Of a stretch of DNA of 64,000 nt, positions 7,274 to 31,179 are shown one piece after another. The stretch spans positions 3,077,016 to 3,141,015 of the forward strand of contig NW_006921536.1 of NCBI RefSeq assembly GCF_000340215.1, in the 5' to 3' direction. The stretch's first letter is position 1. Each line of letters starts with the position of its first letter. Both the position numbers and the translations under genes were made by a program. The DNA comes from Pseudocercospora fijiensis CIRAD86 (Eukaryota; Ascomycota; Dothideomycetes; Mycosphaerellales; Mycosphaerellaceae). The notes beneath the pieces were generated by a model, which was not told the origin of the DNA, ran no database searches, and saw nothing but the letters and a program-made list of their open reading frames with translations.

Positions 7274-7345
7274 TGTGAATGGAGGAAGGCGTTCATATGC
7301 AAGGAAGGTGCGATGAGCGAGGGAGGATAGCAGTGTATATATCAC

Positions 7346-9338: not shown

Positions 9339-9977
9339 TCATGCTCATGGAGATGCTGGCTACCGAAGTAAAGGAAACACCGGCCGCTGTCTCCTTTCAG
9401 ACGCTCACGTGTTGGAGCCTCAGGCTGCATGTCTTGGCTCGATAGTAATCGTGGCCGTGGCCTACGCTTGCTTTCTGGCAGACCAATAGCTATTCAAGGC
9501 CGTTCGACATTATGCTTGAGAATCATAAGCTGTATCAATTGATCGTGACATCCTAGAGTGGATGAAGCGACCTCATTGATCATGGGCACGCTCTCAGAAG
9601 GCTAAGCGTTACTCGGCAGAAGCAGAGAATGGCTGTCCTGCCGTCCTGATGTTCCGTCTTGTTACCACACAAGGCGTAATTCGATTAAAATGGAAAGAAA
9701 GCGATATGATTCTCCTGCGCATGTCTCATAACATTATTAGAGAATCGAAAAGTATAGTATAGCTTTATATATCAGGAAGCGAAGTGGAAATTTCTGCAGG
9801 TAGTAGTAGTGTTAACAAAGCAAAAAACAAGCCTTTGGGTATCTTTTGATCCAAATATGCAAAGAAAGACAAAAAAAGCACGCATGCTTGCTCAACTCAA
9901 CTCCCAAAAAGTCATAAAAAAAGTCCTCCCATCTATTCGTAGTCCTGTTTCAACCTTTTTCTGACTGTTTTGTTCGT
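9339..9977. other. Intergenic region, PIG-P promoter / laccase 3' flank
   Basis: No gene seen. It contains the upstream region of the PIG-P gene and the 3' untranslated region of the laccase, with AT-rich and A-rich runs at 9660-9960. Short frames here are antisense extensions without support. Confidence 0.6.
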
Positions 9978-12035: not shown

Positions 12036-12726
12036 ATTGCTTCTAGAAGAAGAATTACAGCGAAATGGAAATGAAACCTAAGCGAAAAGCATGAAGCAGC
12101 ACAGAAGGTAGGAAAAGGTGCGCAAGGAGACACTGCTTCTCTTTTAGTCCTACCACCGGACAATCTGGAGGCGTGCGTGTCGCAAGGGAGCGTCCATATA
12201 TAGCGGCTGTGCCAATTCTCAGCACGTTCATGATACTTCGACTATGCGGTTCGGCCTCGAGGCTCGTGGCTGCGTTGAATTACCCGTCGGTGCCGACACC
12301 CAGCGAGCGAGTTGACTCGATAGAGGATTGTCTTGGACCCACCCTGCGAAAGGCTTCACCTGTCATAGACACGGGAGCAAGGATAACGTTACCTGCTGTT
12401 GAAAGAATCGTTTTCTCGTCACCTCGTGCTTCAGAGAACCAGGGGATGTATGCATGATCGGAAGGATTACACGCCAGTCCAGATATGCTAGCGGGCAAGG
12501 CCCGTGTAAACGCCTAGCTGCACTTTGCCGATCCAATATCTCGGCTCTCCAACAAGCTTCGAAGTGCTTTGCGTGTACACGTTCCAGGTCGTCATCATTA
12601 ATATACTTGGATACTCAATGCTTCTGCCTTGCTCGGAAAGTTGAAGAGTTGGATTGCGGTGGGGTGCCTTGAGGTTTGCTTGCGATTCAATGTGAGGTGC
12701 GACGCAGTCATCAGGAATTCCACACG
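12036..12726. other. Laccase upstream region, no gene seen
   Basis: Host-like composition. This is the likely promoter region of the minus-strand laccase. Frames on the plus strand here lack domains and overlap minus-strand frames of similar length. I cannot identify specific binding sites with confidence. Confidence 0.5.
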
Positions 12727-12792
12727 CTACTCCTCGGGCTTGTTGAAGAAACGAGCACGAGCCTGTTGCTCCTCTTTACTCAAACGAGCGAT
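12727..12792 (-). pseudogene. Possible orphan terminal exon
   Basis: The minus strand shows an acceptor-like CATTACAG followed by codons reading IARLSKEEQQARARFFNKPE and a final Glu before TAG. The Glu/Gln/Arg-rich helical end looks like a genuine protein C-terminus. Upstream on the minus strand, about 80 bp away, a GTAAC donor candidate would join YSVMCTLKGR in frame, but other frames are open here too. RIP-mutated repeat DNA begins about 350 bp upstream, so the 5' part of the gene may have been destroyed. Function not recognised; chance is possible. Confidence 0.25.
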
Positions 12793-13149
12793 CTGTAATG
12801 CCAGTCATTGTCAGCCCTGCTTGATGAACCTTTTGCAACGTGGATGTGGCAACCAACCATGGAAGGTTACTCGGCCTTTCAATGTGCACATCACGGAATA
12901 CTGTAGGAATTGCTGACACGATCGACCGCCTCTACGCCTTCTACTAGGCTTTGGTCATGCTGTAATAGGGTTTCCCGGTCAGCTGTTTGGCGTTCGCGGT
13001 ACTGCTTGTGAGATAGCCGCTAGTAGGTGACTTCGGAGAGTTCTCCGAGCGGTGATGTGGCAGACTTCCAAGAATAACCGTTTGAGCCTCAGTCGGGCTC
13101 CACCAACCTTGATTGAGCGCGGACCCCTGCAAGACTTGCCCTAAGCCCT

Positions 13150-16100
13150 TTTAGCAAATCCTCACGATGCACCTTCGTTTGTTTGCAGGTCTTAGGATGC
13201 TTGTTGCATGGTAGGGTTACTCTTAGATGTTAGGAGTTTTAGCTAAACCTAGAGCGGAGTTAGGGGCATAGTCTTTTACTAGCGTTTACTAGGCAATAAG
13301 CTACCCGCAATCCTCTAGTTTAGTGCTATTTAGAACTACTCGGCGTAGTAACGGATTAGGTTAAGAAGGGCGCCTCTCTCGAGCCTATCGGTTAACTATT
13401 GTTAAAGCGGCTATTTAACTATTATAGAAGCGGCGCTTTTATAGTAGAAGAGACTATTATAGACTAATATATAGACTAAGATTAAATACACACTATTGCT
13501 ATAGAATACTATTATTGCCTTTACCGCCTTCTACGACTATAGCGGAAGGCTTATCTACGCTAATAGCTATCTCTTCGACCTCGTTATTACTTAGTACGTA
13601 GTCTCGTACGTATTACTAGCTTACTAGCGGTTAACTAGCGATTACTATATATTCTTAAACCTCTTATCTCTCGTCTAACTCGCTCGTCGCTAGGCAAGTT
13701 ATTAGCGGCGTCGTCTTCCGAGTCGTCTATTGTTTATCTATTTAGTCGCCTATTCGCTCGTTTATAATCCTCGTCTCGGATATAGCTTATTGTCCTGTCT
13801 ATAGTGTACTAGTCTACGTTATAGAAGATAAGAAGCTCGTTAAAGGACGAGAGGCCGGAATCTGCAAAGTAGCGGTCGTCTATAGCAATGCTATTAATCT
13901 CGCGAATACCGTATATATAAAGCTATAATAGCTTACCCTAATGCTAGTAGTTAGTTAAATAGCAAGTACCTAGTAGCGTAGGTAGACCTCGTACTAGCGG
14001 CGGCGGTTCTATGTCTTCTATTAAATCTACCTCTTCTATGTCGTCTAAATCGAGCGGTTATAAGGACTGTGTTTCTAGCGTTGTCTCGCGGCGCGGCGTA
14101 TCGAAGGAGGGCGGCGGTAGGCGCGGAATTAGCCTTAGAGTAAGGTTACCTAGCGGAGGTAGTAATAAGAATATAGGTTAGCGAATAGGTAACGATTAAA
14201 CGCGCCGTTTTGAAGGTAACGGTCGCAGTATTATATTAGTATAGATATAGTGCGTTTCTAGTGTAGTTAGTAGTAATTGAGTGCGAGTTAGTATCGCTAG
14301 AGTTAGTGTCGCTAGTTTAGAAGGTAGTTAAGTCGTCTACCGTCGCTTAGTCTCGCCTATAAATAGGACTTCCTATAGATTAGCGATAAAATAGTTAACA
14401 TTTAGTGCGTAGTAACTATCCGAGAAGTCCTTAACCTTCCGCACGTAGAAGGCGTAGAATAAGTCCTTTATAGAAGCGTTAATAGTAGGGTCGTCTACTA
14501 TGCGCTAATATTTTAGATTTAGCGTTTCTACTGCCTCCTTAAAGTAGCCTCGAAGGTCTCTTAATTAAGGTGTTTGTGCTAAGGCAACGGCGTCTTCTTC
14601 GTAACCTTCGATTACGAGTTGCTAAGTATCGAGAACGCGCTAGTATTTGTAAGCAAATATTACGTTAAGGCCTAGAAACAGCTCGATATATCGTCGCTGT
14701 TATAGCTTACTAATTTCTAGTCTATTAAATAGGTAGTCTCGTAGAATATAGTAACAAGGTAGGCGGGTTTGAAACTACGAGAGGCAATTGCAACAAGCCG
14801 GAGTTATATAGTCGTAACTGCGCAGTATGCCCTTGTAAATAGGCGCCGCCTTAGCTTCTATCTTAATAGCGATATCTACCTATTCTCGTAGTCGATCTTA
14901 AGCCGCTAGCGATTACAGACTCTCGAAGCTTAGAAGGCGCTTTTTATACTAGTATTATATGCCTTTGCTAACCCTATAGCTAGCGAGTTGTGCCTTATAA
15001 GCTAGCCTGTCGTCTACCTTAAGAACCTCGAGAATCGTGCTATAGAGGTTATAGAACACGAGGTTCCGCTTGTTCCGGTTATACTTAATAGTATAGTAAT
15101 AGCCCTCGAGAGGCGAAGTTGTCCGTATTTGTAGCAACAATAGACTATAGAGCCGTACCTATGTAGCCTATATTCGTAAAGTCTAACTATTCTAATTATA
15201 GCGTATATATTAGACCTTGTTTTGCCAGTCTGTAGGCTTCTTCTCTTGTAACTACTCCTAGATCCAAACTATGTCGTTAGTAACCTCGCTAGCGCTACGG
15301 GCGTAATAGATTGCGTAGTAGAATCGCTTAACAACCTCTAGAAATTAGGCCTCTAGAAATAAGCGAAGGAAGGTCTCTTTAACGTGCCGCTAGTAGAGGT
15401 AGATAAGCACCTGTTTCTCCTTCTAAGAGAGGTTAATTGCGGCCTACTTAGAGGCCGAGTCGTCTACTATAGCTATAATAGCATTCTATAGTAGTAACTA
15501 CTCTTTAAGGACTCGGAGACCGGCTTCTACTAGCTTAGCTTTCTAAGATTCTAGCAACATATGTCCTGCTAGCAACTAGTACCCTAACCTATTACGAACA
15601 TATATAGTAAAAAGGCTCTAGCTAAGGTCGGTAGTCTTATAAGTTGCGTCTAGTAAGAACAACTATATAGCATGTAAGTTAGTAATGTTTTAAATTTTTG
15701 AAGTTAGTCGTAAGAACTGTAGAACGCAAGCTTAGAAGCTTAGTTATACGCCTGCCTTCTATAGTAATAATAACAATACCTGCACTTATATCTCCTGCCT
15801 TAGTATTTAACAACTCTCGCTGCTAGTCGGTCTGAAATACAATACTACGCTCTTCCTTGCCCTTTAATCTCTTCGATATTACCTAGTATTTAAGCTCTTT
15901 GCCGTCTATATTATTACAAAGGCTATTAAGAATAGCAGGAAGGTCGCCTAGCTAGATATTCGCATTTCTACGCTTAGTACTACGCACCTTCTTTAAGTCC
16001 GGCCTAATCTTTAACTAACCGATAGTACTAGCCTTTATATACTGCCTACTAATCTTACTAAACTCGTCCTTTATTAGGCTATTTTTAACAAATTTAATAA

Positions 16101-16716: not shown

Positions 16717-16724
16717 AGTATAAC
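16717..16724. repeat. 8-bp target site duplication, left (AGTATAAC)
   Basis: Identical to 26659-26666 on the other side of the hAT-type element; marks the insertion point inside the 5' flank of the MULE relic. Confidence 0.88.
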
Positions 16725-16744
16725 TAGACCCCGCAGTGGTTCGG
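16725..16744 (+). repeat. Left terminal inverted repeat of the hAT-type element
   Basis: TAGACCCCGCAGTGGTTCGG, perfectly inverted at the right end. Downstream, GGTTCGG/GGTTTGG words repeat (16760-16860), as they do inside the right end (26560-26640). Confidence 0.88.
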
Positions 16745-16865
16745 TTTCCGAACCACCAAACGTATATGGTTTGGTTTCTTAGCGGCGAACTAGCTCCCTG
16801 GTTCCGGTTTGGTTTTTTCGAACCATATAGATTCCTGGTTTAAACTAGAGACTGTATTGGTTTTA

Positions 16866-17165
16866 CTATAAGGACACTCTTATTCGACTGCCGGCTACGA
16901 TTGCCGGCTATAATAGTAACTCTGTTACATTTACTAGGCGTAGTTGCCGTTGCTAGGGCGTAGTTGCCGTTACTAGGGCGTGGTTTTGCTATAAGGACAC
17001 TCTTATTCGACTGCCGGCCACGATTGCCGGCTATAATAGTTACTAGGTTGTATTTACTACGCTTTATTACCGTTGCTAGGGCGTGGTTGCCGTTGCTAGG
17101 GCGTAGTTGCCGTTGCTAGGGCGTAGTTGCTATTGCCGGGGCGTGGTTGCCGTAGTTGCGAAAGC
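16866..17165 (+). repeat. Left subterminal repeats of the hAT-type element
   Basis: Two copies of a block of about 50 bp starting CTATAAGGACACTCTTATTC and containing two GCCGG palindromes lie at about 16868 and 16990. Each is followed by tandem runs of a 20-bp unit (GTAGTTGCCGTTGCTAGGGC and variants), seven or so units in all. Repeated subterminal motifs are typical transposase-binding DNA in hAT elements. Confidence 0.8.
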
Positions 17166-17620
17166 TCATCTATATAACGTTACGTAGGCGGTAACAATTA
17201 GGGCTTCGCGATATTCTTATACTTTTAACTTCTTCCTCTATACCTATACCGATAACAACTACTATACGCTGCGCCCCCGCCCCTTTCCCTTACAATAGTA
17301 AGAGAGAAGCGCGCCGCGCGCTAAACAGAAGATAGAACTAAAGACCGCGAGTTTGTTTTGCCTAAGCGTCTAACTAAAAAGCGTAAGACTAAAGAGGAGT
17401 ACTCTACGAAGAAGAATTCCGTACGAGACCGCGAGAGAAAGGATAAGATAGATAAGGATAAAAGAGCTAAGGATAAGAGAAGAAAGGCGCGGAATAAGGC
17501 ATTCTATCGATAGCTAGCGCCTATAGAAAAAAGTGAAGGTTGGAATAAGAAGACAACCTAAGAGAAGGCTAAGAGGAGGAAAGAATTGCGGCTAGTTTTC
17601 GAGCGTAAAGTTCTAGCAGC

Positions 17621-17727
17621 GTAAGTCAATCTAGCTAGCGGCTATAGCTAGCAGCTATAGCCGGCAGCCGTAGCCGGCAGCTATAGCCGGCATATTTTTC
17701 TTTAATACGTTAACTAATAGCATTCAG
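17621..17727 (+). other. Intron with GCCGGC array (cargo gene 1, intron 1)
   Basis: 107-bp intron with donor GTAAGT, branch TAACTAAT and acceptor CATTCAG. Between 17632 and 17692 it is filled by a tandem array of about 12-bp units of the form CTATAGCCGGCAG. Confidence 0.75.
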
Positions 17728-18208
17728 ACCTATAGTCGCTACCTCTATCGATACGACCGATAGTAACGGAGATATTTAGATAGCTAAGAACAACAATACT
17801 AGAGTTTAGGATGCCGCGACAGAGCTTAATACTGCGAATAAAGGAACTAAAAAAAGCGAGGAGATACTATACGTCGATCTAGTAACAGGTGCAGTCTTAG
17901 GGCCTAACGCTATAGACGATAAGCGCTAGGAGTAGATCGAGCACAGTTAAAGAGACGAGATACTAGTAAAGGGCTAAGGTATAAGTCCTATTAATCTAGA
18001 AAATCATAGTCAAAGCTACTACGAAAAGCTAGCAAGGATTGGAATCGAGACTAGTCGTCTTTATATCCTCGATATAGAGTAGAAGTTTCTTTATTAGTAT
18101 TAGAGCGAAGCCTTTACGTCTATAAAGGCAAAGTAGCTTACGATTAATGCGATCGGGGCTAGGTATCTAGGGACGGTAGAAGTGTTACTATAGGAGGAAG
18201 GGGTATAG

Positions 18209-18274
18209 GTAATTATTCTATGCTCGGCATATATAGCCGGCGTTCGTAGCCGGTAGATACTAATAGTTAAACAG
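18209..18274 (+). other. Intron with GCCGGC array (cargo gene 1, intron 2)
   Basis: 66-bp intron GTAATT...AAACAG with branch ATACTAATAG. It contains ATATAGCCGGCGTTCGTAGC and a second CCGG copy, two units of the array motif. Confidence 0.75.
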
Positions 18275-19604
18275 AAAGCGTTTCTCGAAGGCAGAGTGCT
18301 ACTACTATATAAAATCTTTACTAAGGCAGAGAGGGCTTATATCCGGAATCTAAGCTACTAGTAGGATGGGTTGGCGTTAGAATTCTCTAAATCTCTATAT
18401 AAGCCTCCGAAGGATTACCTATTTTAGCGATACGGCTTTATCTCGACTACTCCGTAGGCACCCGAAGAAGCTCGAGCGCTCTTTAAGATCTTTACTAAGA
18501 AGCGGAAGGAGTTCGAGGATCAGGATTAGTTAATAGAGCTATTAGTTAGTCTTAGGTTTCGTAGTCAGACTCGGCCTAAGCATTTACTTATCGAGTGTCT
18601 TATACCGAAAGAGGATAGATTAAGACTGAAAACGAGCTTAGATTCGTTAGGTACAGTAGCTCGGTTCCGTTAGTAGGAGAGAGCCGCCGTATAGAAGGCA
18701 AAATTCAGGTAGTCAGGGTAGCTAAGAAAGAAATTCTAGTAGTTAGGCTAGCTAGGGTAGCTAGGAAAAAAAATCTAGTAGTTAGGTAGCTAGGAAACAA
18801 AAAAAAAAGGTAGCTAGCTATTTACTGCCTAGCTGTTCCTAACGATACGATACTATAAAAGAAAGGGTGTTTCTCTATAGCTACTAGTATACATCTACTA
18901 CTCCTAAGTCCTTACCTTACCGTACGAAACCTTAAAACATGCCGACCGACATTGTATATACACTAGGCGCTATACTAGGAAGGGTAACAACGAGACGATA
19001 GTCGAAACAGTCTAGTATACGAGCGAGATTGCGACAACGTCGAGAGGAGGTCGCATACTTACCTTCGAGCCTATCGAGTCCTAGACTACGATTAGGGCTA
19101 GATTCATCCTCTCCGAATCCTAGTAGTAGGAATTCATTATAGGGTACTACTACCTAGTCCTTACCTTTACGGAGTCTAAGTAGAAGGTTGTTCGGAGATA
19201 TAAGAACATCGAGTATTAACCCGGAAATCTTCGAAAAGGCTAGCTAGGCGTATCTTTAGAAACCCGAGTATATAGAGTAGTTCAATCAATAGGTCTATAA
19301 GATATAGTTCCCTTTATACTTACGTTCGAAGGAGTATAAACTCCGGAAGTACTCGATGCGATAGGGGAGTAAGGAGCGAACGGACACATTCTAGAAGTTC
19401 TTTATAGAGGGGGCATTGCACCGTTATACGACTTCTCGACTTAAAGGTTAACTAGTAATTGTCTGCAACTTCTGCGGTTCAATCTTAAAATACCCGAAAC
19501 TAGGGGATAGGAACTCATCGCCTACGAACTATCTCTATTCTAAACGGTGTCGGGAATCTTAAGGAGAGAGGAGAGTTGATATAGATACAGCGTTCTAGAA
19601 AGAG

Positions 19605-19704
19605 GTATGTCTTCTAAAATGCCGGCTATAGCTACCGGCTATAGCTACCGGTTATAGATTCCGGCTACCTAAATCAACCGTAGAGATCTAGCTAATTATT
19701 ATAG
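19605..19704 (+). other. Intron with GCCGGC array (transposase intron 1)
   Basis: 100-bp intron, GTATGT donor and ATTATAG acceptor. The array of CCGGCTATAGCTA units spans about 19620-19668, opposite in orientation to those in cargo gene 1. Confidence 0.75.
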
Positions 19705-20638
19705 GCTACGCTTAAGGAAGCTCTAGGATTAAAGGCTACCGATTTCTCCCCCGAAGACTTTAAGCAACTAGCAAACGAAATGCTAGCTACAAACGGTCTT
19801 CCGGAAGACTTTTACGAAAGGGAGTCTATATAGAAGACATACCTATATCTTATAAACTACCCTCCCCCATTTCTCGGCGCGACAACCTAGCGTATTATGT
19901 TCGAAAAGAACAAAGAGGCTGCGTTAGACGACATTTGGGAGATCCTCCGTAATACTCGCCGAGTAGCTATTGCTGTCGATAGCTAGTTAAGCCGGACTAT
20001 AAGAGCCTCCTTCCTCTCGATTATGCTATACTTTATCAATTCGGATTAGAAACTCTAGGAACTTATAATCGGATTCCCTAAAATTCTAGGTTCCTATACT
20101 AGTAAGGATATAGCGAAGCTTGTCTATACGGCAATAGATAGGGTTAGCGTAACAACGAAACTGATCTCGATTACTACGGACAACGCTAGTAATAATCGAA
20201 CATTATATAAGGCGTTATATATACAATTTACTCGCATATATCTTTAAAATCACTAATTGTATCGATAGGGTCGAGTGCGTAGAGGAGATTACAAGGTCTA
20301 TAATCTAGCTTAATCTTCCGAATGTTAAGCTCGCTACGATTCCGGATACGCACGATAATACGCACGATAATAACGATGAAGAGGAGCCTATTAATAGCCC
20401 TAGCCCTATTAAATCGGAGCCGACGTCGTTGCTAGTTGCATCCCTATAGAAGTTTCCCTACCTCGCTTATATAGTTCAAATCGCGATCCGAGCCCTCTTT
20501 AAGACGCTTAAAATTGCACTATTAAACGACGACCAATAGAAGATCCTAGATAAGGATAAAGCAAAGTCGAAAGTCGAGAAACTCATTATAGCAATAAGAC
20601 GGGATAAGGTAGAGAGCCTCGCTCTCGTTTTATATAAG

Positions 20639-20707
20639 GTATAACTTTTATCCGTAGCCGGCACCTATAGCCGGCAACCTAGTATAGTTCTAACTCTTTT
20701 TCTCTAG
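20639..20707 (+). other. Intron with GCCGGC array (transposase intron 2)
   Basis: 69-bp intron, donor GTATAA, branch TTCTAAC, acceptor TCTCTAG. Two array units (GTAGCCGGCACC, ATAGCCGGCAAC) lie at about 20652-20676. Confidence 0.78.
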
Positions 20708-22223
20708 CTTCGTCGTCTAGTAATATATACGAACTCGAGCTTATAGAGATATAACCGATTCGAGGCTATTTAAAAGAACCTAATCGAGCGCCCTAAAACC
20801 GATACCTAGAATATCGCATAGAATAAGCGATAGCAAAAGCGGCCTCCTTAGCGCCTACTCCGTTTTACCTAAGACGTTAAGACCCGGTTCGATTCGACTT
20901 TCTATATAGTTACGAGGGGATATACTTTACGTACCGCTCTCGAGATCTATTAGAGTTCCGAGGGTATTAAGTAGCTTAGCCTTACCGCCGCCGAATAGCG
21001 CTAAGCAGAGTATCTCGTCGATATTAGTAAGCATTACGCGAAGGTTACTACTACGATTAGAAGAACCCGAGGACCGACGATCTACCTTATCTTTACGTAC
21101 TACAACTAGCTCTTTAACGAGCTCGAGGAAACCGTAGCTAAGCTAGCTAGGAAGAGCGTTCCCTAGAAAGTAGCTATAACGAAAGCTATAGACACCTCCT
21201 ATACTAAGTTGCATAAATATTACAGTACTACCTTTAACTCGTTCGGGGATATCTATAGCGTTACGTGCTTGCTTAACCCGGTAGAAAAGGATATATACTA
21301 GCAGAGGCCGGAATAGAAGGCGGACGAGGTGTAGCCGAAGCATTACTAGACTATTCTAGAAAAGATGTTCTACGAGCGTCGGAAAGAAACTAGTCTAAAT
21401 GCAGCTCCTACAAAGAAAAAGAAGGTTTAGAAGGCTCCGATATTATACCTGTTTCGTAGGTAGGAAGTAGAGGCAGAAGAGGAAGCAACTACTAAAGTGA
21501 ATAAAGAAGAGTTCGATCTCTATCGGCGCGCGAGTAAGTACAAACCCGTAGGCTTAGAAAGAGGGCTAATAATCTCTAGATCTTACCGGTCTTCTAGACG
21601 AATTCGGAGACGATATTCTCGCTATATAGTAGCGGTTAGAGCCTAAGTTTCTAACGATAGCGTCGGTCGCTCGGGACGTCCTCGCTATCCCGAGCGTAGG
21701 CATAGGCTATAAGAGGTCTTTTAGTATCGCTCGTTACTAGGGCCGCTTTAATCGAACATACTCGCCTACTACCTTCGAATCTATTATAGTATTCCGATAC
21801 TATCTCCTCTACTAGAATCGCTAAGGCAGGTTACTAAAGATTATACTAAAGGAGTTGATCGAGGAATTAGAAAACCTTAAGATCGAAGAAACCTAGGAGC
21901 GCGAAGAGAATACGAAATTTAGTCTAAGCGAAACCCTAATTAGCGATAACGAAGAGGAGGAGGGCGGAGGCAGAAGGCGACACTAGGTCGAGAAGCGGAA
22001 ACGTATATAAGCTTAGAGTAGCTTTAAGGAGACGAAGCGTTTACGTACAAGGTAATATAGCCGGCGTATATAGCCGGTATATGTCCGAAATGTATTTCGA
22101 ATTCCTAGGACCCAAACAGACTAGTTGCTATAGCAACCGACCCCGCTTACCTACGGACTATTTCTAATTCTCTGTTCGCTCTTCCTCTCCTTCTTCCCTT
22201 TCCCTATATTCTTAAAGACAAAC

Positions 22224-22378
22224 ATGCCTTAAGGATTCGGCTCTTCGGGCCTTCTTAAGCCGGCTGCCTCCCCTTCCTTAAGCTACTATCCTTTATTCGA
22301 ATCTAACGATAACCTAATAAGGCGGTTTAATAGAAGACTATTTATTCTAGAAGGCAAGAAGCATTAATGTCTCCTTAC
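22224..22378 (+). pseudogene. Candidate 5' exon before histone H3-like gene 1
   Basis: Open from ATG with one TAA at codon 3 (probably ancestral Gln): a 50-codon stretch including SSGLLKPAASPSLSYYPLFE and NLIRRFNRRLFILEGKK. It is followed by a stop, a branch-like TATTAATTTT and TTTTCTAG just before the next exon. The donor is not clear and the phase with the next exon does not match the most obvious GT, so the link to the H3-like gene is unproven. Confidence 0.4.
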
Positions 22379-22403
22379 GATTATATGCTTATTAATTTTC
22401 TAG

Positions 22404-23008
22404 GTCCTACCGATATACCCTCGTCGCCTAAACGCGTAGATAAATATCTTTAGAGGCTAAAGGGTAAGGGTAAAGCAAGCTAAGTATAGGGAGACCGTAG
22501 CGAGAACGAGATATCGGAAGAGTAAGGCTCTCCGTAGTATATACGAAGGAAGGGGGTTCCTCGGAAAATAGTACCGAAAAACAAGAAGGCTATAGGTAGA
22601 TAGGAGAAGGCTAAAAAGAGTAGGCGGACGAAGACTATCGCGAAGAAAAGTTATCTTTCTATTAAAAGAAAGGGAACAAGGCAGGACTCGACGATAAAGA
22701 AGCGGCGCTTTAAACTAGGTACTATTGCCCTTCGCTAGATCCGGCTTTTCTAAAACAAAAGAGGGACCGAGCTTTTAATCCCTAAGACTCCCTTCTAGCG
22801 ACTCGTCCGAGAAATTACATTAGATTTTCGGTCTAGTATGCGATTTACGGCTAAGGCGATTGGTGCTTTTTAGGAAGCTACGGAGGCATTTCTCGTAACC
22901 GAGCTTAAGCTTTCAAACCTCCTTACTATCTATACGAAGCGGGTTACTCTTTAAAATAAAGATATGCAGCTTCTAGCTAAAATTCGGCGTCGGTTTATAG
23001 CGGATTAG
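22404..23008 (+). pseudogene. Histone H3-like protein 1 with long basic tail (transposon cargo)
   Basis: One frame of about 200 codons with stops only as TAG/TAA. The first about 99 codons are a Lys/Arg-rich tail (RRKGVPRKIVPKNKKAIGR; SRRTKTIAKKSYLSIKRKG). From 22703 the histone fold aligns without gaps to canonical H3 except in the alphaN linker. It reads RRFKLGTIALR, then TELLIPKTPF, stop (Gln in H3), RLVREITLDFRSSMRFTAKA, IGAF, stop, EATEAFLVTELKLSNLLTIY, TKRVTL, NKDMQLLAKIRRRF. Loop 1 has canonical H3 length, not the longer CENP-A loop. Two residues are extra between alphaN and alpha1. The end TAG after FIAD lies where H3 normally stops. A GCCGGC unit pair follows in the 3' region (about 23066-23088). 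Role unknown; an element-encoded nucleosome component is the plain reading. Confidence 0.82.
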
Positions 23009-23119
23009 TTGGAAATTGTATTTAGTCGTTAGATTAACCTAGGAGGAGGCCCATTTTCGTATCCTTTTGCCGGCTATAGGTACCGGCCACATTTCTGATT
23101 TTATCTCCGCGCCGTCCCT

Positions 23120-23500
23120 AAATCTAAGGTACGAAGTAGAAACCTAGCGCTCTATATTCACCCGGCTCTTATAGAGACGAGCTACATTTAGATTAGTTTC
23201 TTCGCATATCGCGACCTAGCGGGTAGTAAGCGAAAGGGCGATAGAACGTTTATAATACGTCTCTATTGAGACCTAAAACACAAAGGTCCTAAGGAGCCCT
23301 AGCATCCTAACTATAAGGAGATTCTTTAGCATTAGCACTTTGATCCTCTATACTACGAGGCAGATAGCAAGCCTACGAGAGAGAAACTTTAACGAGAAAT
23401 TCTCTATAATGCGTAGCGCTATTGCATAGCTACAGATACGTACTAAGTCCGGCAACTCGAAGAAGAATTAAGATAGCGTATTAGCGACCGAGGAGGAGAT
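23120..23500 (+). pseudogene. Unknown coding-like stretch in the hAT-type element
   Basis: A single frame runs with stops almost only as TAG/TAA (one TGA). It reads, for example, KSKVRSRNLALYIHPALIET, ISFFAYRDLAGSKRKGDRTF and HFDPLYYEADSKPTRE, then continues into the duplicated segment (REILYNA, RYCIATDTY). It may be a further exon of the H3-like gene 1 transcript, a separate gene, or its remains. A GTATCC...GCCGGC...CTGATTTTAT intron-like stretch precedes it (about 23056-23119). No family recognised. Confidence 0.45.
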
Positions 23501-24113
23501 CGATAGTATACTAGTAGAGTCGAGGTCTTATAAGCGAAGCACAAGATAATATAGGCTCTTAGTCGTATAGAGTAACGTACTATATAAATAACTAGGCGTG
23601 CTACTCTTATTCACTTACGACCTATATCCTAGGATGCTCTTATCGTACTTTTTATACTCTTTTCTAATACCTTACCTATAATCGCTCCGCGACAACCGAG
23701 TAAATATAAGCTATAGGATTTCCGCTCGGTACCTTAGCCTTCGAGATACGGCGGAGTTGATTCTCTATAATACGTAGCGCTATTGCATAGCTATAGATGC
23801 GCACTAAGTCCGGCAACTCGAAGAAGATTTAAGATAGCGACCGAGCAGGAGAATAACAGTATATTAGTAGAGTCGAGGTCTTATAAGCGAAGCACGAGAT
23901 AATATAGGCTCTTAGTCGTATAGAGTAACGTACTATATAAATAACTAGGCGTGCTACTCTTATTCACTTACGACCTATATCCTAGGATACTCTTCTCGTA
24001 CTTTTTATACTCTTTTCTAATACCTTACCTGTAAGCGCTCCGCGACAACCGAGTGAATATAAGCTATAGGGTTTCCGCTCGGTACCTTAGCCTCCGAGAT
24101 AGGGCGGAGTTGA
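23400..24113 (+). repeat. Tandem duplication of about 0.36 kb
   Basis: Copy 1 is 23400-23760 and copy 2 23761-24113. Both start TTCTCTATAATxCGTAGCGC and end CGGAGTTGA. They differ by scattered transitions (ATGCG/ATACG, CAGATAC/TAGATGC) and one small indel after GATAGCG. The differing transitions show that the copies were mutated after or during duplication. Confidence 0.85.
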
Positions 24114-24119
24114 ATTTAG

Positions 24120-24400
24120 AGCGATAGCCGGCACTCGTAGCCGGCACTCGTAGCCGGCATATAGAGACGGTAGTAGGCCTTTTCCTGCTAAATGACTAGC
24201 TTGTTTAGTATAGCCTACCTGATATTTCTTATATTTACTAGCAATAGGCCTAGGTTACTTATAAGATTACTATAGCTAGTAAAGGCATTACTAAAGAATA
24301 TCTATACTATAGTAGGATACTATTATTACGCCGGCTATTCATTAAAAGGAGGCTTTCGCCTATTACTATGCCGGCTATATATGCCGGCTATATTTCAAAG
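24120..24400 (+). repeat. GCCGGC arrays between cargo genes
   Basis: Three units of TAGCCGGCACTCG at about 24125-24163 and two of ATGCCGGCTATAT at about 24369-24394, with an isolated ACGCCGGCTATTC near 24340. They lie in non-coding DNA between the tandem duplication and the second H3-like gene. Confidence 0.75.
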
Positions 24401-24689
24401 TCTGCCGTACCTGCCTTTTTTAGCCGTGCCTGCCTTTTTTAGCCGTACCTACCTTCTTTCCTTGCTCTAACGTTACTATAATGTAGGCTTGCGCGAAGCT
24501 TACTCTGTTGCCTAGCGATACCGCGATACTACCGCTATATTCAACCTTCGCATCGATACCTATACCTCTACGCTCTACATCTACTACCTCCGTAATACCC
24601 TTACTCCGCGCGCGCCTTCGTATACCTTCGTAACGCACTTTTTTCCTCAATTCGACGACTTTTATAATAGCGAGTCTACTTAACTAAGT

Positions 24690-25366
24690 TACGACGCCTC
24701 GTAAGAAGGGACCTAGTGCTTCTACGGGTCGCAATAAGATCGGAAATAATAGAACGAGCATAGTACATTAACGTAAGATAGCTGCTGCTGCTACCGCTAG
24801 CTCCGGTGCTAGAAAGGGCGTCGCGAGCAAGGCTCCGCGTAAGACAACGGCGGGTAAGGCTCCGCGCAAGACAACGGCGGGCAAGGCTCTACGCAAGACG
24901 ACAACTAGCGCTTCTACTACTAGTAGCAATCGTACGAAGCGTCGATAGCGCCTAGGAAGTAAGTCCTATTTATAGCCGGTAGCGTAGCCGGCAGCGTAGC
25001 CGGCAGCGTAGCCGGCATTCTTACTGTCTTTTTACTAATCCTTCTTTAGCCGTAGCCCTCCGTAAGATTCGGCAGTATTAGAAGAGTTCTAAGCTCCTAA
25101 TCCGCAAAACTCCTTTCTAACGACTTATTCGCGAAATTGCCTAGGATTACAGAATAGACCTTCGCTTCTAAGCCTCCGCGATAGGCGCCCTTTAAGAGGC
25201 TATAGAAGCCTACCTAGTTCGTATCTTCGAATGTATGTTTCTCTTCTACCTCTTTTCGGACTATGCTAATACTATTTTAGCGGTCAACCTTATAGCTATC
25301 TACGCGAAGCGTATAACGATTATAGACAAGGATTTTAAAGCACTCGATCAGATTCTAAAAGGCTAG
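24690..25366 (+). pseudogene. Histone H3-like protein 2 with triplicated tail motif (transposon cargo)
   Basis: Three exons: about 24690-24958, 25050-25232 and 25281-25366. Exon 1 encodes a basic tail of about 90 residues with ARKGVASKAPRKTT followed by AGKAPRKTT and AGKALRKTT, a tandem repeat of the H3 tail segment around K14-K18, then the R-rich lead into the fold. Intron 24959-25049 (GTAAGT ... TTTACTAAT ... CTTTAG) splits the GTVALRKIRQY block exactly, as H3 requires. Exon 2 has SSKLLIRKTPF, stop, RLIREIA, stop, DYRIDLRF, IGAL, stop, EAIEAYLVRIFE. Intron 25233-25280 (GTATGT...TTTTAG) restores FESVNLIAIYAKRITIIDKD, continuing KALDQILKG before TAG. All stops fall at H3 Gln positions (CAG to TAG). 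The loop-1 length is that of canonical H3. The start codon is not visible; the 5' limit is an estimate. Confidence 0.88.
24959..25049 (+). other. Intron with GCCGGC array (H3-like gene 2, intron 1)
   Basis: 91-bp intron interrupting the conserved GTVALR block of the H3 fold. It holds four tandem units of about 12 bp (TAGCCGGCAGCG) at about 24975-25018, then a pyrimidine stretch, branch TTACTAAT and CTTTAG. Confidence 0.85.
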
Positions 25367-25587
25367 AATGTCTATATTCGAGATAGTACTAGATAGGATA
25401 GATGTACTAGTAGGAAGGATATTCGTAGTGTCGTCTACAAGCTTTTCTATATACGAAATGAGCCGCTATTATACGGCGCTGTATACCGCGCTCTAAATAC
25501 TCTCTAAGCATATATATATAGTACAGTATACTTTATTGGCCGTACGGAATAGAAGTCTCCCAAAATCCCGTTAGTACTAAGGAGTAA

Positions 25588-25648
25588 AAAGGCCGGCTAC
25601 GCTACCGGCTACGCTGCCGGCTACGCTGCTAGCTACGCTGCTAGGTTT
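25588..25648. repeat. GCCGGC array, right part of the hAT-type element
   Basis: Units of the form CCGGCTACGCTG, four to five in a row, preceded by TAGTACTAAGGAGTAAAAA. A near copy of that leader plus two units occurs at about 26433-26482, so the pair may be an internal duplication flanking the minus-strand cargo gene. Confidence 0.78.
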
Positions 25649-25690
25649 TTTAAAGAACTAAAAGAAGATAGACATTCCGGTTAATTTATA

Positions 25691-26230
25691 TTAGTTTAGA
25701 TTTTTATAAAAAGAAAATAGGGAAAAATAAGGAAGGTTGAAGAGCCTAATAGTTATAGTTATAGGCACTATCCCTGTTTTCTAGAGCATATTATATACCT
25801 GCCTTCGCAACTCTACCTAATACTCCCTCTAAATATCCTTATACTCTACCTACTAGAAATTCAACTAGGTACCTAGACCTATAGCTACCTCTATATCTTT
25901 TACTATCTTCTATAGGTTGAAGGCCTCTTCTATAGCAGCCTCTACCTCCTTATATAATACGAAGTTACTACCTGCCCTACCCTTTATATCTCCTAAATAA
26001 CTAAGAGTTCTAAGGAACGAACTAGCATTCGGCCTTAGTATAGCGAGTAACTAGTAGAACGTTCTATAGAGCTGCCTTATAGCTCTTTTATATACTGTAC
26101 CGATACCGAGGGAGGAGCTATCCTAGTACTTAATGTTATCGAATAGTTCGGTAGGAAAGTGTATAAACTTCTTAAGGAGGAGGACTTCTAAGGAAATCGA
26201 TGAGTTCTACCTAGATCTAGATAAAGACAT
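25691..26230 (-). pseudogene. Unknown cargo gene 2 of the hAT-type element
   Basis: From ATG at 26230 to TAA at 25691 the minus strand reads 179 codons in one frame, broken only by TAG codons, so it is a RIP-mutated but otherwise length-intact gene. Segments include LEVLLLKKFIHFPTELFDNI, GIGTVYKRAIRQLYRTFY, LGDIKGRAGSNFVLYKEVEA and AIEEAFNL. It looks helical and mixed-charge, without membrane segments or zinc motifs. No family recognised. It is the only cargo gene read opposite to the transposase. GCCGGC arrays lie on both sides. Confidence 0.6.
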
Positions 26231-26638
26231 TCTACTAAGCAGTTAGGGAATTGAACCGTAAACGAAAGGATGAAATTTATACCTAAGGAGTGCAGTTTCC
26301 GAACTAAACTATAATGCCTTATATATATATATGCTTTTGATTAGTTAGTGCCCTTAGCTGATTGTCTATAGATTTAAGGTTATATAAGTACCTTTATACA
26401 ACTACGTAGCCTAAGTAGGATTCGAAAATTCTATAAGTACTAAGGACTAAAAATGCCGGCTACGCTACCGGCTACACTGCTAAGTCTTATAAAGGGCTTG
26501 CTTGAAGCTACGTATACATTCGTACACTTCTTAAAAACCGATAAATTATATAGTTCGAACCAGCTACTTATGTGGTTGCTTAGCAAACCAACCTAAACCA
26601 AACTAGAGTTTCGGCTTAGCAAACCAAACCAAACCAAC

Positions 26639-26658
26639 CCGAACCACTGCGGGGTCTA
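26639..26658 (-). repeat. Right terminal inverted repeat of the hAT-type element
   Basis: Exact inverse of 16725-16744, preceded by repeated AAACCAAACC words that mirror the GGTTTGG words at the left end. Confidence 0.88.
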
Positions 26659-26666
26659 AGTATAAC
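26659..26666. repeat. 8-bp target site duplication, right (AGTATAAC)
   Basis: Identical to 16717-16724. The sequence after it (26667 to about 26760) still looks RIP-mutated and is probably the outer 5' flank of the MULE relic; host-like DNA starts by about 26800. Confidence 0.85.
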
Positions 26667-26759: not shown

Positions 26760-28424
26760 CCACTGTTGCAAACAGTGGTACGCTAAATTTCCTGACATAC
26801 AAGAATACCTCATGGTAGACTTGTAGCTTATGACTCGCCGAGATTGCTTATTGGTGTATATGATGGAGGTCCGTCTCAGGTCGGCCACAGCCCTGCTGTC
26901 CACGCGAGTTGTCCGTTTGCGATCTCTCTCCGGCAGAAGCGAATCCCGAAAACAATAGTGCGTACAAATTCTTCACACAATTGTGCGTTCAAAATTAGAA
27001 CTCTGCTCCTGCTCCCACGAGTCATCAGGGCCGAGAAGGAGTTGTTGTGATGTTTCGCCACAGCCACAGCTCGAATGGAGGATTGAGGTTGCTTCTCAGC
27101 TGAAGCCCTCACCGGTCTTTCGCCGCGGAGATGGCGGCAACGGTCATCATATGAATGTCACTGCCGACACAACCTGCGGATGTCGCACGTTTGCAAATCA
27201 TGATCCCTCGACGTCTCGTTTTCCGATAGAACCGCAGCTGTTGCTGTCGTTCTTGCGTAGACAGAGCTTGTTTGCGGCAGCAATCTCCCAGGCCTGGACC
27301 CAAGGCCTGAAGCGCCACATTTATGCGACTCAATATGCGAGTGTTTTCGTGAACTCCTGAGCTCATCTCTGCTCAGTGCTCACGAATGCTGTTGGAGAAA
27401 GACCGGCACAGCATCGAGCGCGAACGTCGGTTCAAGCTTCTCAGCAGGAAGAATTGCTCCGAACGGCGAACGCGCAGTGGAATACATGATCCTTTCAATA
27501 GTGTGGTAAAGTGCTGACGTGCGTGCATGCTGCATGTTGGCCTGCTCCATGTCGTGCAGTCGTAGAGGATCTTGGATCTTCGGAGAATTAAAATAGATGC
27601 ACCTCAGCAGCCATGCGCGCTTCCAAGGCAAGAAGTGTCAAGAAGTGGATTGTCAGCACGAGAGGGCCTGACGAGCTGCATCATGCATAACGCAATGAGA
27701 AGTCACCCTCCCGATGGCTGACCACCCTGCTTCAATAATACAACTTCGACATAAATCGCCAAGGAAGGACCCTCTGCTGCATCACGCCGCGATGGCCGTG
27801 TCTTCAGCAGGATGTTCCGCGAAGTTGGCGAAGGGCTCCGTTTTTCCCATCAGAAGAGTTTCCTGTCAAATGCTCCCATGGCACGGCAAGTAGATCTCAC
27901 GTGCGCCATCTAGAGAGCCAGGTATAGCAGCACGTTCGGACACAGGTGCGATCTCTGACTGTATCGCCGGCCATCTCGTAGCGTGTGCAGTCCGCGTTCT
28001 TGTGTGGTGGCAGGTGTACGTCCAGTTTCACTCAGTCCGGGCTCCCAGGTGTCAAGGTGTTTGGTGTTTCGTCTGCGCCCTTTCTTGCAGCACGAGTTGA
28101 GTGTGTTCCTGGAGAATCAGCGCAGAAGAAAGGACATGAAGATGGGGAAAGCAGTGGATATATGCTCTAGTGGAGAGCGGTAATGAGCAAATATCAGACT
28201 CTGGTTTTCCTTGGTGGTCTCGGCGATGATTGGTCAGTCGTGGAAATGGGACGTGATGAGACGCGGCGGGCGAGGGAGAAGCTCGAAACGTCCGCGTCGC
28301 TGGGCCTCCAAAACGGCGACCGCCATCACCAACACCAACACACACCACCCTTTGCACACTCTCATCGCTGTACATACTATACAGAACGTCGCAAAGATCA
28401 CGGAATCACGAAATCGCAATCGCA
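26760..28424. other. Intergenic region upstream of the mitochondrial SSB gene
   Basis: Host-like composition. Open frames of 60-125 codons overlap on both strands (26844-27631, 27983-28375) without domains, conserved ends or convincing introns, so I call none. The last 80 bases are the likely 5' leader of the SSB gene. A perfect-stem palindrome CCACTGTTGCAAACAGTGG lies at about 26760-26778, close to the repeat border. Confidence 0.5.
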
Positions 28425-29062
28425 ATGCAGGCTCTCCGCTTCCAAGTGCCACGCGCAGCCCGCGCATTCTCCACCACCCCTGCCCGACCACTTGCGAAGA
28501 TGCAGCTCATCGGCCGTTTGGCTGACCAGCCTGAGCTCGTTGATACATCCACTGGACGTCAGCTCGTCAAGTACGCGCTGGGCGTAAACAAGGGTCCAAG
28601 AGATGAAAACGGAGTTCAAGGCGTGAGCTGGTTCAAGGTCGCAAGCTTTCTCGACGACGGACCACAGAGAGATCTCCTGCTCAGTCTGCCGAAAGGGTCA
28701 GTCTATCACTACACGAATGAGGCAGAAGCTGTATAGGATGCGCTAGCACAATCGCCGTGCTTCGCGCGTTCCAAACTGCTTGATCGCTGCTCTGGAGAAG
28801 AGATATAGAAATCAACAGCACTAACAGAAGCGTGCAGAACACAACTCTTCGTTGAGGCAGAGGCGAGGATGGACACTTACGAGGTCGAAGGCCAGAAGCG
28901 CACTTCTCTCAATCTGCTTCAGCGTATGCCAGGCATCTGTCTAGGTCCGAATTGAAGATGACCCGCTAACAAAGTTCAGGCTCCTTCGAGGCACTCCAGC
29001 GACCACGTCAAGTGCAAGAGGAAGATGCCAACACAGCCCAGCAGGCCGCTGCCGGCCAATAG
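28425..29062 (+). CDS. Mitochondrial single-stranded DNA-binding protein (Rim1-like)
   Basis: 146-residue OB-fold protein that coats single-stranded mitochondrial DNA during replication. Exons are 28425-28696, 28838-28923 and 28980-29062. Intron 1 (28697-28837, GTCAGT...GTGCAG) joins LLSLPKG to TQLFVEAEARMDTYE; intron 2 (28924-28979, GTATGC...CGCTAAC...TTCAG) joins SLNLLQ to RSFEALQR. The total of 441 nt is in frame. The N-terminus is a mitochondrial presequence (FQVPRAARAFSTTPARP). The OB core includes QLIGRLADQPELVDTSTGRQ, KYALGVNK and VSWFKVASF. The Gln/Ala-rich tail (ANTAQQAAAGQ) is typical of fungal members. The donor GTCAGT is slightly unusual. Yeast homologue RIM1. Confidence 0.92.
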
Positions 29063-29454
29063 GTGAATCATGCCGCTTGAAGTTGGCACACTGTGTATGA
29101 CGAAGTCGATTTGGTAGAATACCCACGGTCCTGGAACGGATAGCAAAGAGTAGGCGCGAGCTTGAATGTATTATGTTTTGCCAAAAGAGCAAGAATTAGC
29201 CCGGATGGATGTGTATCTCATATGTAAATGGAGAATGCGAACGCTCTCAACTCTTGCAAGAGTGATGATTGCTAGTGCATACTAATATCTGAGAAGTATC
29301 TCTATTACCACTTTACTTTACGAGTCTGGTAACGGAAATCGCACCGGCTGACTTTGAACATCCGTATAGCAGAGCTCATCGGGACCTTCAAAGCGCCGAA
29401 CATTTCGACAAGAATCGCGCCTACCACAATTTCTCTCCTGGATGAAGAGTTCGA
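29063..29454. other. Convergent 3' region between SSB and membrane-protein genes
   Basis: Downstream DNA of two converging genes. Nothing recognised. Confidence 0.6.
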
Positions 29455-30393
29455 TCAAAGTGCATTCCCAAGCGGAGAGTCCTCATCGTCATCGTCATCG
29501 TCATCCTCATCATTCTCGTCCTCGTCCTCGTCCTCCTCCCCCCTCGCACCCTCATCAACACAAACATTTCCAAACCCCTCACACTCCTCCCCCACACACC
29601 CAACCTCTCTACACTCCCACCTGTCAAAAAAACTCGCACAAGCAAAAGTCTCCTCCCCAAAAGCATAAGCAAAAGTCCAAGCCCTCCAAACCAACCCGTC
29701 AAACTTGGCCGTCGCATTTCCAATCCTCATCATCGACAACCCATGACATTTCGGCATCGACTGCGCCCCCCCATCCACATAATCCCCACACTGCAAATTT
29801 CTCGAATCCGCAATGTCAAGGCGAAGACATTCATGGTCACGCTGGTTCCTGTATAAAGAAAATGTGATCAGGATGGCCGTGATGCTGAGCAGGAGGATCG
29901 GAATGATATATGTCAACCAGTAGCGGAGCGGTTGGGCTTGTTGTGGGGAGCGAAGGATGTGATGAGTTGCAGCAATTCGGCGGGGATCGGGAGGGTTTGG
30001 ATTGCTGGGATCTTCGATTCTACGGCACTTGATGACTTGCTCGTACGTGGATTTTGGTCTTTGCTCCTGGGGCCGCAGTTCGCGAGGGATATCGGAGACG
30101 GTGGGAAGATTTTGGATTGGTGCTGGGTGCGAGGCATAGCTGTTTGGCGCCGGATCGTGCGTGTCTTCTGGAGGCGAATCTGGAATTTGCGAGTCGTTTG
30201 CATCGTGGAGTGGCTAGATGTATGTTCGTGTTAGCGGGTTTAGGGGTTACCCAGGCTGGAACAGCGACATGCGCATGCTCGATGCCTTCGGACGGTGGAA
30301 AATGCGACGGCTCACCTTGCGGTCCAGCGAAAGCGATCTTTCGCGTCGCTTCAGCGGCCGAAGAGGCAGTGCTGAGCCTCGTCCTCGACCCAT
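29455..30393 (-). CDS. Hypothetical single-pass membrane protein with acidic tail
   Basis: Exon 1 is 30316-30393 (26 codons starting MGRGRGSALPLRP). The intron 30214-30315 (GTGAGC ... GCTAAC ... CATCTAG) is followed by exon 2 at 29455-30213; the product is 278 residues. After a Pro/Ser-rich region of about 115 residues there is one membrane segment (YIIPILLLSITAILITFSLY). It is followed by a Cys-containing domain (CLRLDIADSRNLQCGDYVDG, later CASFFDRWECREVGCVGEEC) of about 90 residues with some eight Cys. The end is a Glu/Asp-rich tail of about 30 residues encoded by a TCATCG/TCGTCC microsatellite on the plus strand. No signal peptide; the N-terminus has a basic patch (KRRERSLSLDRK). I do not recognise a family; the Cys pattern suggests a disulfide-bonded domain on the non-cytosolic side. 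Confidence 0.65.
29478..29545. repeat. Trinucleotide-type microsatellite in coding DNA
   Basis: Runs of TCATCG, TCATCC and TCGTCC on the plus strand encode the Asp/Glu tail of the membrane protein on the minus strand; it is likely length-variable between strains. Confidence 0.75.
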
Positions 30394-31179
30394 ACTGATG
30401 AACGAAAGACTGCAATGAGACAAGAAAAAAAGAAAGACAGCCCCCGACCGCGACGCACCAACGGAATGAATGATATAGAGCAAAGCGAATTTCCATGGAG
30501 ATCCGATCCGGTGTGTGACAACAATGTCTGGTACCTTTCATCATCTTGGCTCATCCTGATCGAAACAATACCTGCTTACCGCAAAGTCAACCCACGGAAC
30601 GATACCAAATGTGACCTATCACCATCTTGGCATTAGTGGACAGACATATAGCAACTCCTCGTTCAGAAGCAGAATACATGTACGACCACAACACTCGATT
30701 CGGACATGGAATTCACACCGTGGCTCCCATACCAAACGAACCCCATTTCAACGCCGAAAGAAATTCGGATGCTGTCAAGTGATGCATTTATCTACAAAGT
30801 TCTTCTGTTCCTCTCACGTCTCTGGTTATCAAAATTTTCCAAGCCTATGACAGCTTGTTCCGTGCAGAGATCCATTCCCACACCTACATGACGGAAGGTC
30901 AGAAGGCTCGAAATTGCATTCGGTAAGGTCTTGGTTCATAGTCGGCCCATAAGGTATACACATTACGACCAGGTACACTATACTACACTACACTACTCCC
31001 GCTGTCTGCTTTGTCTGTCGCTTTCTTGCTTAGGTACTACTCTCTTGATGTGGGTACAGCCGTATAATCATAACAAGCTGAACAAGGCTTGCAAGTCACT
31101 CACAACTTGCAACAATAATGCAAATACAATGCGTTTCAAACGATACGCTCAGCGTTCAAATAAATGAAAAATTGCTCAC
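30394..31179. other. Intergenic region
   Basis: Shared upstream region of the membrane-protein gene and downstream region of the RA-PH gene. AT-rich towards 31000-31180 (likely 3' untranslated). No gene recognised. Confidence 0.55.

What the first reader, a model, noticed from the sequence alone, without database searches (positions are those of the whole stretch)
16725..26658. A hAT-type transposon that carries two histone H3-like genes
Seen: one unit bounded by perfect 20-bp inverted repeats and an 8-bp target duplication contains a hAT transposase and, 3' of it, two separate genes whose translations align across the H3 histone fold (TVALRKIRQY, LLIRKTPF, REIA, EAYLV, IYAKR). Known: hAT elements normally encode only a transposase, at most with an extra protein. 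Inference: an element encoding its own nucleosome components could alter chromatin on its own DNA, counter silencing, or bias target choice. That the genes were spliced and of normal fold length argues they were functional before RIP. I do not know a described element of this kind, though I cannot search.
Basis: partly seen in the sequence, partly recalled or inferred. Interest (0 to 1): 0.93.

Follow-up and report, generated by a model that had tools for sequence, protein, structure and literature searches.

The report
Dead jumping gene carrying histone genes
This is one mutated copy of an already published fungal jumping gene that carries two histone H3-like genes; the new part is evidence that these may have been real, spliced and evolving genes of the element rather than accidentally captured junk.

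Summary
Window 16725-26658 is a complete 9,934-bp hAT-type element with perfect 20-bp inverted ends, an 8-bp duplication, and two histone-H3-fold genes 3' of the transposase. It is RIP-damaged.

It is not new: Dhillon et al. 2019 (PMC6710886) described this family in Pseudocercospora fijiensis, and Manning et al. 2013 (PMC3538342) a comparable element in Pyrenophora. The genome here fits P. fijiensis.

What I add questions the published reading. (1) The second H3 gene (H3L2) has two intron-like stretches in frame; one is exactly 48 nt, the length of the published '16-amino-acid insertion'. (2) Four further, diverged elements carry both H3 genes. (3) Counted on transversions, which RIP does not make, two loops of H3L2 change about four times faster at protein-altering sites than synonymous or noncoding DNA; four of six cross-clade tests agree. 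The rest of the fold and H3L1 show no such excess. This suggests diversifying selection on a transposon-encoded histone. It is not proven: loops were first chosen by inspection, and copies are not a random sample.

The parts
16717..16724 (.). left copy of the 8-bp target site duplication AGTATAAC
26659..26666 (.). right copy of the target site duplication AGTATAAC
16725..16744 (+). left 20-bp terminal inverted repeat
   Evidence: 838 genome hits with up to 3 mismatches against 5 control hits
26639..26658 (-). right 20-bp terminal inverted repeat
17301..18700 (+). gene X, function unknown, about 3 exons (17301-17620, 17732-18217, 18284-18700; boundaries approximate, set by eye)
   Evidence: frames; transversion dN/dS 0.26-0.80, none of 6 comparisons significant at 0.05
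18939..22054 (+). hAT-like transposase, 5 exons (18939-19604, 19705-20213, 20269-20638, 20708-21533, 21580-22054), 4 introns; many in-frame stops
   Evidence: one 948-codon read-through frame after splicing, with 49 stops; weak Dimer_Tnp_hAT; transversion dN/dS 0.35-0.56, p<0.004 in 5 of 6 comparisons
22225..23008 (+). H3L1: long N-terminal part (about 155 codons) plus an H3 fold from about 22707; no intron seen in the fold
   Evidence: Histone E 1.8e-27 for the diverged copy L039; ATG present there; alignment gaps of 3, 6, 12 and 21 nt, besides a 1-nt gap in this copy; 18 transversion steps in 297 fold sites
24667..25366 (+). H3L2: exon 1 (tail) 24667-24958, exon 2 25050-25232, exon 3 25281-25366 (start and end approximate; the presumed start codon reads ATA)
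   Evidence: profile of four spliced read-through proteins matches H3.1 chains at E 1e-42
24959..25049 (+). H3L2 intron 1, 91 nt here, with GCCGGC minisatellite; 3 nt from the site of host H3 intron 2
   Evidence: GTAAGT donor 44 of 44, TAG acceptor 44 of 44, length 67-116 nt; host gene, compared by eye
25233..25280 (+). H3L2 intron 2 (proposed), 48 nt; same length as the '16 AA insertion' of PMC6710886
   Evidence: 48 nt in 44 of 44; CTAAT branch 44 of 44; TAG or CAG acceptor 44 of 44; but GT donor in only 2 of 44, AT (as RIP would leave it) in 42
25082..25105 (+). hypervariable loop 1 of H3L2 (alphaN-alpha1 region)
25142..25183 (+). hypervariable loop 2 of H3L2 (end of alpha1, L1, start of alpha2)

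Best explanation
This is a dead, RIP-mutated copy of the H3-carrying hAT family already described in Pseudocercospora fijiensis. Shown: a complete element with transposase, an unknown gene and two diverged H3-fold genes; both H3 genes in all five elements read here; two intron-like stretches in H3L2 whose removal keeps the frame; few transversions in H3L1; H3L2 loops that change faster than noncoding DNA. Inferred: the H3 genes were long-standing expressed genes of the element, not a freshly captured host transcript, and gave it a benefit while active. Most likely the proteins entered nucleosomes or held histone chaperones at element DNA and so opposed silencing, with H3L2 loops tracking a changing host partner. 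RIP later inactivated the copies.
For: Match with the published family: length, 20-bp ends, 8-bp duplication, two H3 genes, loss of CA/TG, intact host H3 on C6. Introns. Both H3 genes in the window, L039, L040, L048 and L049, whose longer aligned stretches are 75-89% identical to the window element. H3L2 fold transversion dN/dS 0.36 (p 0.0037) for window versus L039. Loops: dN 0.042 (25/593) against dS 0.011 over all H3L2 codons and 0.012 (44/3759) in noncoding DNA, over 11 independent pairs more than 0.4% apart; ratio 3.8, bootstrap 1.9-6.2. Codons hot in clade D are hot in clade A (p 1.2e-4) and the reverse (p 3.7e-4); B predicts A (0.0046) and D (0.0032).
Against: Predicting clade B from A or D is not significant (p 0.065, 0.082). 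Over the whole H3L2 fold dN is about equal to dS, and the fold core is not significantly constrained (0.61, p 0.27). Only 1 of 6 fold comparisons shows significant purifying selection, and none for H3L1 or gene X. The H3L2 tail has dN/dS 1.96 on few changes (28 and 4). The synonymous rate in the H3L2 fold is high in one comparison (0.244 against 0.074 for transposase), which would fit a local mutation or recombination hot spot. Loops were first picked by inspection, and copies came mostly from directed searches. A scan permutation reached the observed maximum in 13 of 20000. The 48-nt stretch has a GT donor in only 2 of 44 copies and is unusually conserved (2 steps in 48 sites). A clade of H3L2 with the ordinary H3 rows is not rejected (p-AU 0.086). 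No expression or protein data. No stop-free copy among the 150 scored hits of each, apart from host H3 and host CENP-A.
Confidence: 0.7

Rival explanations
1. Passive transduplication, as published: the element captured a processed transcript of the host H3 gene, which then rode along without function and was killed by RIP.
For: Published exon-exon junctions without introns in deRIPped copies. H3L1 has no intron at the host intron-2 site. Both genes are clearly H3-related, and a clade of H3L2 with ordinary H3 is not rejected (p-AU 0.086). Over the whole H3L2 fold dN is about dS.
Against: H3L2 has an intron 3 nt from host intron 2 in 44 of 44 copies and a second, 48-nt, intron-like stretch. Both genes are in all five elements read. 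The loops of H3L2 look non-neutral. H3L1 and H3L2 each form a supported clade that excludes host H3 and CENP-A.
Confidence: 0.2
2. H3L2 was resident and coding, but its loop variation comes from a mutation or recombination hot spot, not from selection.
For: Third codon positions around the loops are also raised (19/36 steps), and the fold synonymous rate is high in window versus L039.
Against: Invariant codons are interspersed with hot ones. Intron 2, in the same gene, shows 2 steps in 48 sites. In 11 independent pairs the loop synonymous rate is low, on few sites (2/133).
Confidence: 0.25
3. The H3 genes are a separate nested insertion.
For: None found; the stretch between the two genes aligns poorly between subfamilies.
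Against: Same order in the five elements read. Most of the longer inverted repeats of the 25 shown for 21900-25800 are GCCGGC minisatellites, and none frames the two genes with a target duplication that I noticed.
Confidence: 0.03

Closest known systems
H3-carrying hAT family of Pseudocercospora fijiensis (Dhillon et al. 2019, PMC6710886)
   Same: Length about 9.5-9.9 kb, 20-bp ends, 8-bp duplication, two H3-like genes per full-length element, RIP bias, host H3 intact
   Different: I read the 16-aa insertion as a 48-nt intron, find a further intron, a long N-terminal part on H3L1, diverged subfamilies that share both genes, and loop hypervariability
H3L transposon of Pyrenophora tritici-repentis (Manning et al. 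2013, PMC3538342)
   Same: hAT with transposase, an unknown ORF and an H3-like gene that is neither H3 nor CenH3, with an altered tail
   Different: 5.6 kb (and a 2.3-kb form), one H3L gene, mostly without damage, with ESTs. PMC6710886 reports no nucleotide similarity; I could not test protein relationship
CENP-A / CenH3
   Same: Fast-evolving loop 1 in an H3-fold protein (adaptive loop 1 in CenH3 is recalled, not looked up)
   Different: Neither H3L falls in the CENP-A clade; by eye neither has the longer loop 1 of the fungal CENP-A rows of that call
Pack-MULE-type gene capture in plants
   Same: Host-like gene inside a DNA transposon (named in PMC6710886)
   Different: Here the genes sit in the full-length element beside the transposase and are shared by the subfamilies read

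Membership tests
hAT superfamily | 8-bp target site duplication | tested here: met
   AGTATAAC on both sides
hAT superfamily | short terminal inverted repeats | tested here: met
   20 bp perfect
hAT superfamily | hAT transposase with C-terminal dimerisation domain | tested here: inconclusive
   PF05699 E 0.096 and 0.083, 12.9 and 13.1 bits against a cut-off of 21.4; RIP damage lowers the score
hAT superfamily | DUF659 domain, reported for this family in PMC6710886 | tested here: inconclusive
   no Pfam match at E 1 other than PF05699, on RIP-damaged letters with X at stops
hAT superfamily | catalytic triad | not tested
   not attempted on a RIP-damaged sequence
published P. fijiensis H3-hAT family | about 9.5-9.9 kb, 20-bp ends, 8-bp duplication | tested here: met
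   9,934 bp
published P. fijiensis H3-hAT family | two H3-like copies, the second longer by 16 codons | tested here: met
   two Histone stretches; 48 nt extra in 44 of 44 H3L2 copies, read here as an intron
published P. fijiensis H3-hAT family | same terminal sequence as published | not testable with these tools
   the published TIR letters are in a figure, not held
histone H3 | H3 histone fold | tested here: met
   PF00125, 2 stretches; H3.1 chains E 1e-42 for H3L2
CENP-A | groups with CENP-A, longer loop 1 | tested here: not met
   the three CENP-A rows form their own supported clade (95/99) without H3L1 or H3L2, in a tree of 15 rows and 94 columns

The most novel reading that the evidence does not exclude
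A DNA transposon lineage kept a pair of its own histone H3 variants while it split into subfamilies: a slowly changing long-tailed one (H3L1) and one (H3L2) whose DNA- and chaperone-facing loops diversified recurrently under positive selection. That would be a mobile element in an evolutionary conflict with host chromatin.
Probability: 0.35. Interest if true: 0.85.

Novelty: already known. Interest (0 to 1): 0.45.

Why it matters
The existence of the element is published. If the reinterpretation holds, hAT-borne H3 in this fungus is not a captured passenger but a working part of the element. Transposon-encoded nucleosome parts would then be a testable way of countering silencing. Scoring only transversions lets selection be measured in RIP-ruined genes without rebuilding them.

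Tried and rejected
Nested insertion: no support. CENP-A identity: not supported by the tree. Host H3 as parent of H3L2: open, since a clade of H3L2 with the H3 rows is not rejected (p-AU 0.086), nor is one common origin of H3L1 and H3L2 (p-AU 0.27). Homologues of H3L1: 105 proteins, each with a histone domain; in the 9 of 105 I read none shares the long N-terminal part, judged by eye. Homologues of the transposase: none at E 0.001 among 7,996 scored candidates. H3L2 homologue searches failed or were not sent, so relationship to the Pyrenophora H3L is untested. Four of eight literature searches failed. That loop selection and the intron reading are unpublished therefore rests only on the parts of the two papers that I read and on searches. 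A test of the H3L2 tail used a frame shifted by one; it was repeated in the right frame. In-frame stops as evidence gave little: the transposase frame has 49 stops against 65 and 75 in the others.
Full report
What is there. The window holds a complete element at 16725-26658, 9,934 bp, with perfect 20-bp inverted ends and AGTATAAC on both sides. Dinucleotides show heavy RIP: CA and TG at 0.35 and 0.31 of expectation and TA at 1.58, against 1.17, 1.20 and 0.52 at 27000-33000. The first 1,001 bp match 40 places in the genome, itself included, at 96-100% identity (40 of 716 candidates scored). The 20-bp end occurs 838 times with up to 3 mismatches, against 5 for the control.

Which genome. G000 has 73.9 Mb in 30 contigs. 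The intact host H3 gene lies on C6 (L009), and PMC6710886 places the original H3 on scaffold 6. With the element itself this points to Pseudocercospora fijiensis.

Known already. PMC6710886 (read: abstract and outline, the first part of the text, Results, the first part of the Discussion, Methods, and passages) reports 784 H3-like copies in 471 hAT elements of P. fijiensis, full length 9.5-9.9 kb. The elements have 20-bp ends, 8-bp duplications, one or two H3-like genes each, and CpA-to-TpA bias. The paper interprets this as capture of an H3 transcript or retrocopy, because junctions lack introns, and notes a 16-AA insertion in the second copy. PMC3538342 (read: passages and the first part of section 20) reports H3L genes in a hAT of Pyrenophora tritici-repentis, with ESTs. 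The finding's claim of novelty therefore fails.

Gene models. The transposase reads as one 948-codon read-through frame after removal of four GT-AG introns, with 49 in-frame stops. Its hAT dimerisation match is weak. H3L1 (22225-23008) has a long N-terminal part and a fold without a visible intron; a diverged copy keeps its ATG, and alignment gaps are 3, 6, 12 and 21 nt, besides a 1-nt gap in the window copy. H3L2 (24667 to about 25366) has three exons. Across its two junctions the spliced product reads GTVALR in three of four subfamily representatives (GTGALR in E, and GTVALY counted as GTVAL in B) and IFESVNLIAIYAKR in three of four (a stop replaces N in B). Across 44 copies, intron 1 has GTAAGT in 44, TAG in 44 and lengths of 67-116 nt, while exon 1 keeps its frame in 42. 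Intron 2 is 48 nt in 44, with CTAAT in 44 and TAG or CAG in 44, but GT in only 2; the other 42 have AT, which RIP would produce. The 48 nt equal the published 16 codons and, if translated, would interrupt helix alpha-2 (helix limits recalled). Against the intron reading, this stretch is unusually conserved (2 transversion steps in 48 sites) and most donors are lost. Host H3 intron 2 lies 3 nt from H3L2 intron 1, compared by eye.

Subfamilies. L039, L048 and L049 each carry transposase, H3L1 and H3L2 in the same order; L040 carries both H3 genes but aligns only from element position 2858, so the start of its transposase is missing or unrelated. Identity of the longer aligned stretches to the window element is 75-84% for L039 and L040, 83-88% for L048 and 83-89% for L049. 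Twelve facing pairs of perfect ends 9-10 kb apart appear in the 100 places listed of 838. Eleven contain both H3 genes. One, C14:456472-466282, lacks both at the expected places and was not resolved. Short elements of 373 bp share the ends but neither gene (2 read; 40 of 103 candidates scored for their middle at 78-100% identity).

Selection, counted on transversions only. RIP makes transitions, so transversions are free of it. Transposase dN/dS is 0.35-0.56 with p below 0.004 in 5 of 6 comparisons (0.44, p 0.11 in the other). The H3L2 fold gives 0.36 (p 0.0037) for window versus L039, but 0.56-0.88 without significance in the other five. H3L1 and gene X give no significant result. In 31 distinct H3L2 copies, steps per site are 0.83 and 0.82 in two stretches, 0.18-0.36 in the rest of the fold apart from 0.385 at its start, 0.34 in the tail, 0.15 and 0.04 in the introns and 0.26 in the 3' flank. 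The 31 come from 47 rows after dropping 3 duplicates, 2 poorly covered copies and those identical in purine/pyrimidine code. In 11 independent pairs more than 0.4% apart, loop dN is 25/593, dS over all H3L2 codons 0.011 and noncoding 44/3759; p is 3e-5 and 1.6e-6, and the ratio is 3.8 (bootstrap 1.9-6.2). In the same pairs the fold core has a ratio of 0.61 (p 0.27), the tail 1.96 on few changes, and the fold as a whole about 1.1. The loops were chosen after inspection, so codons were also chosen in one clade and tested in another. Four of six such tests are significant (p 1.2e-4 to 0.0046), and the two on clade B are not (0.065, 0.082). A scan permutation reached the observed maximum in 13 of 20,000. 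The H3L1 fold shows 18 steps in 297 sites among 7 distinct copies of 36 rows, against 7 in 79 flanking sites; that sample differs from the H3L2 sample.

Where the loops lie. By eye on the alignment to H3.1 the hot codons correspond to H3 residues about 57-59, 62-64, 76-80, 82, 86 and 89. That these face DNA and histone chaperones, and resemble the adaptive loop 1 of CenH3, is recalled and not tested.

Origin. In a tree of 15 rows and 94 columns, H3L1 (96/95) and H3L2 (99/98) form separate supported clades outside the CENP-A clade. A single H3L clade is not rejected (p-AU 0.27), nor is a clade of H3L2 with the ordinary H3 rows (p-AU 0.086). An origin of H3L2 from an H3 gene is therefore open.

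Verdict. The element is ordinary in the sense of already described. The account of its H3 genes as a captured retrocopy should be revisited. The strongest open idea, a transposon-encoded histone under diversifying selection, has moderate support and known weaknesses: a non-random sample, post hoc loops, a simple average-linkage tree and no intact relative.

Noticed in passing
L046, L047; G000:C7:1843928-1844300 and C14:62379-62751: 373-bp elements with the same 20-bp ends, a middle that does not match the big element, and weaker RIP signs (TA/AT 1.22 for L046 against 1.8), as expected below the roughly 400-bp RIP threshold; 40 scored places share the middle.
   Followed up: partly
G000 contigs C13 and C11, C12, C17, C20, C23: Subfamilies differ by chromosome: 6 of the 8 best D/E-type H3L2 hits lie on C13, and all 12 best B-type hits lie on C11, C12, C17, C20 and C23.
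   Followed up: no
window 17621-17720, 19605-19704, 20639-20707, 24959-25049: Introns of the element's genes carry 12-13-bp GCCGGC minisatellites; several vary in length between copies.
   Followed up: partly
window 23399-24113: A 353-bp tandem duplication between the two H3 genes, in a stretch that aligns poorly with the diverged subfamily.
   Followed up: no
window about 4112-4249: A second hAT dimerisation match (PF05699, E 4.2e-5, above the cut-off) in the left part of the window; only two plus-strand frames of 1-14000 were scanned.
   Followed up: no
G000:C14:456472-466282: A 9.8-kb interval between perfect ends in which the H3 genes are absent at the expected places.
   Followed up: partly
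window 17301-18700: Gene X: a multi-exon reading frame 5' of the transposase; no Pfam match at E 1 lies in it in the three plus-strand frames.
   Followed up: no
window 35000-58000: A second AT-rich block with the same RIP-like dinucleotide pattern.
   Followed up: no
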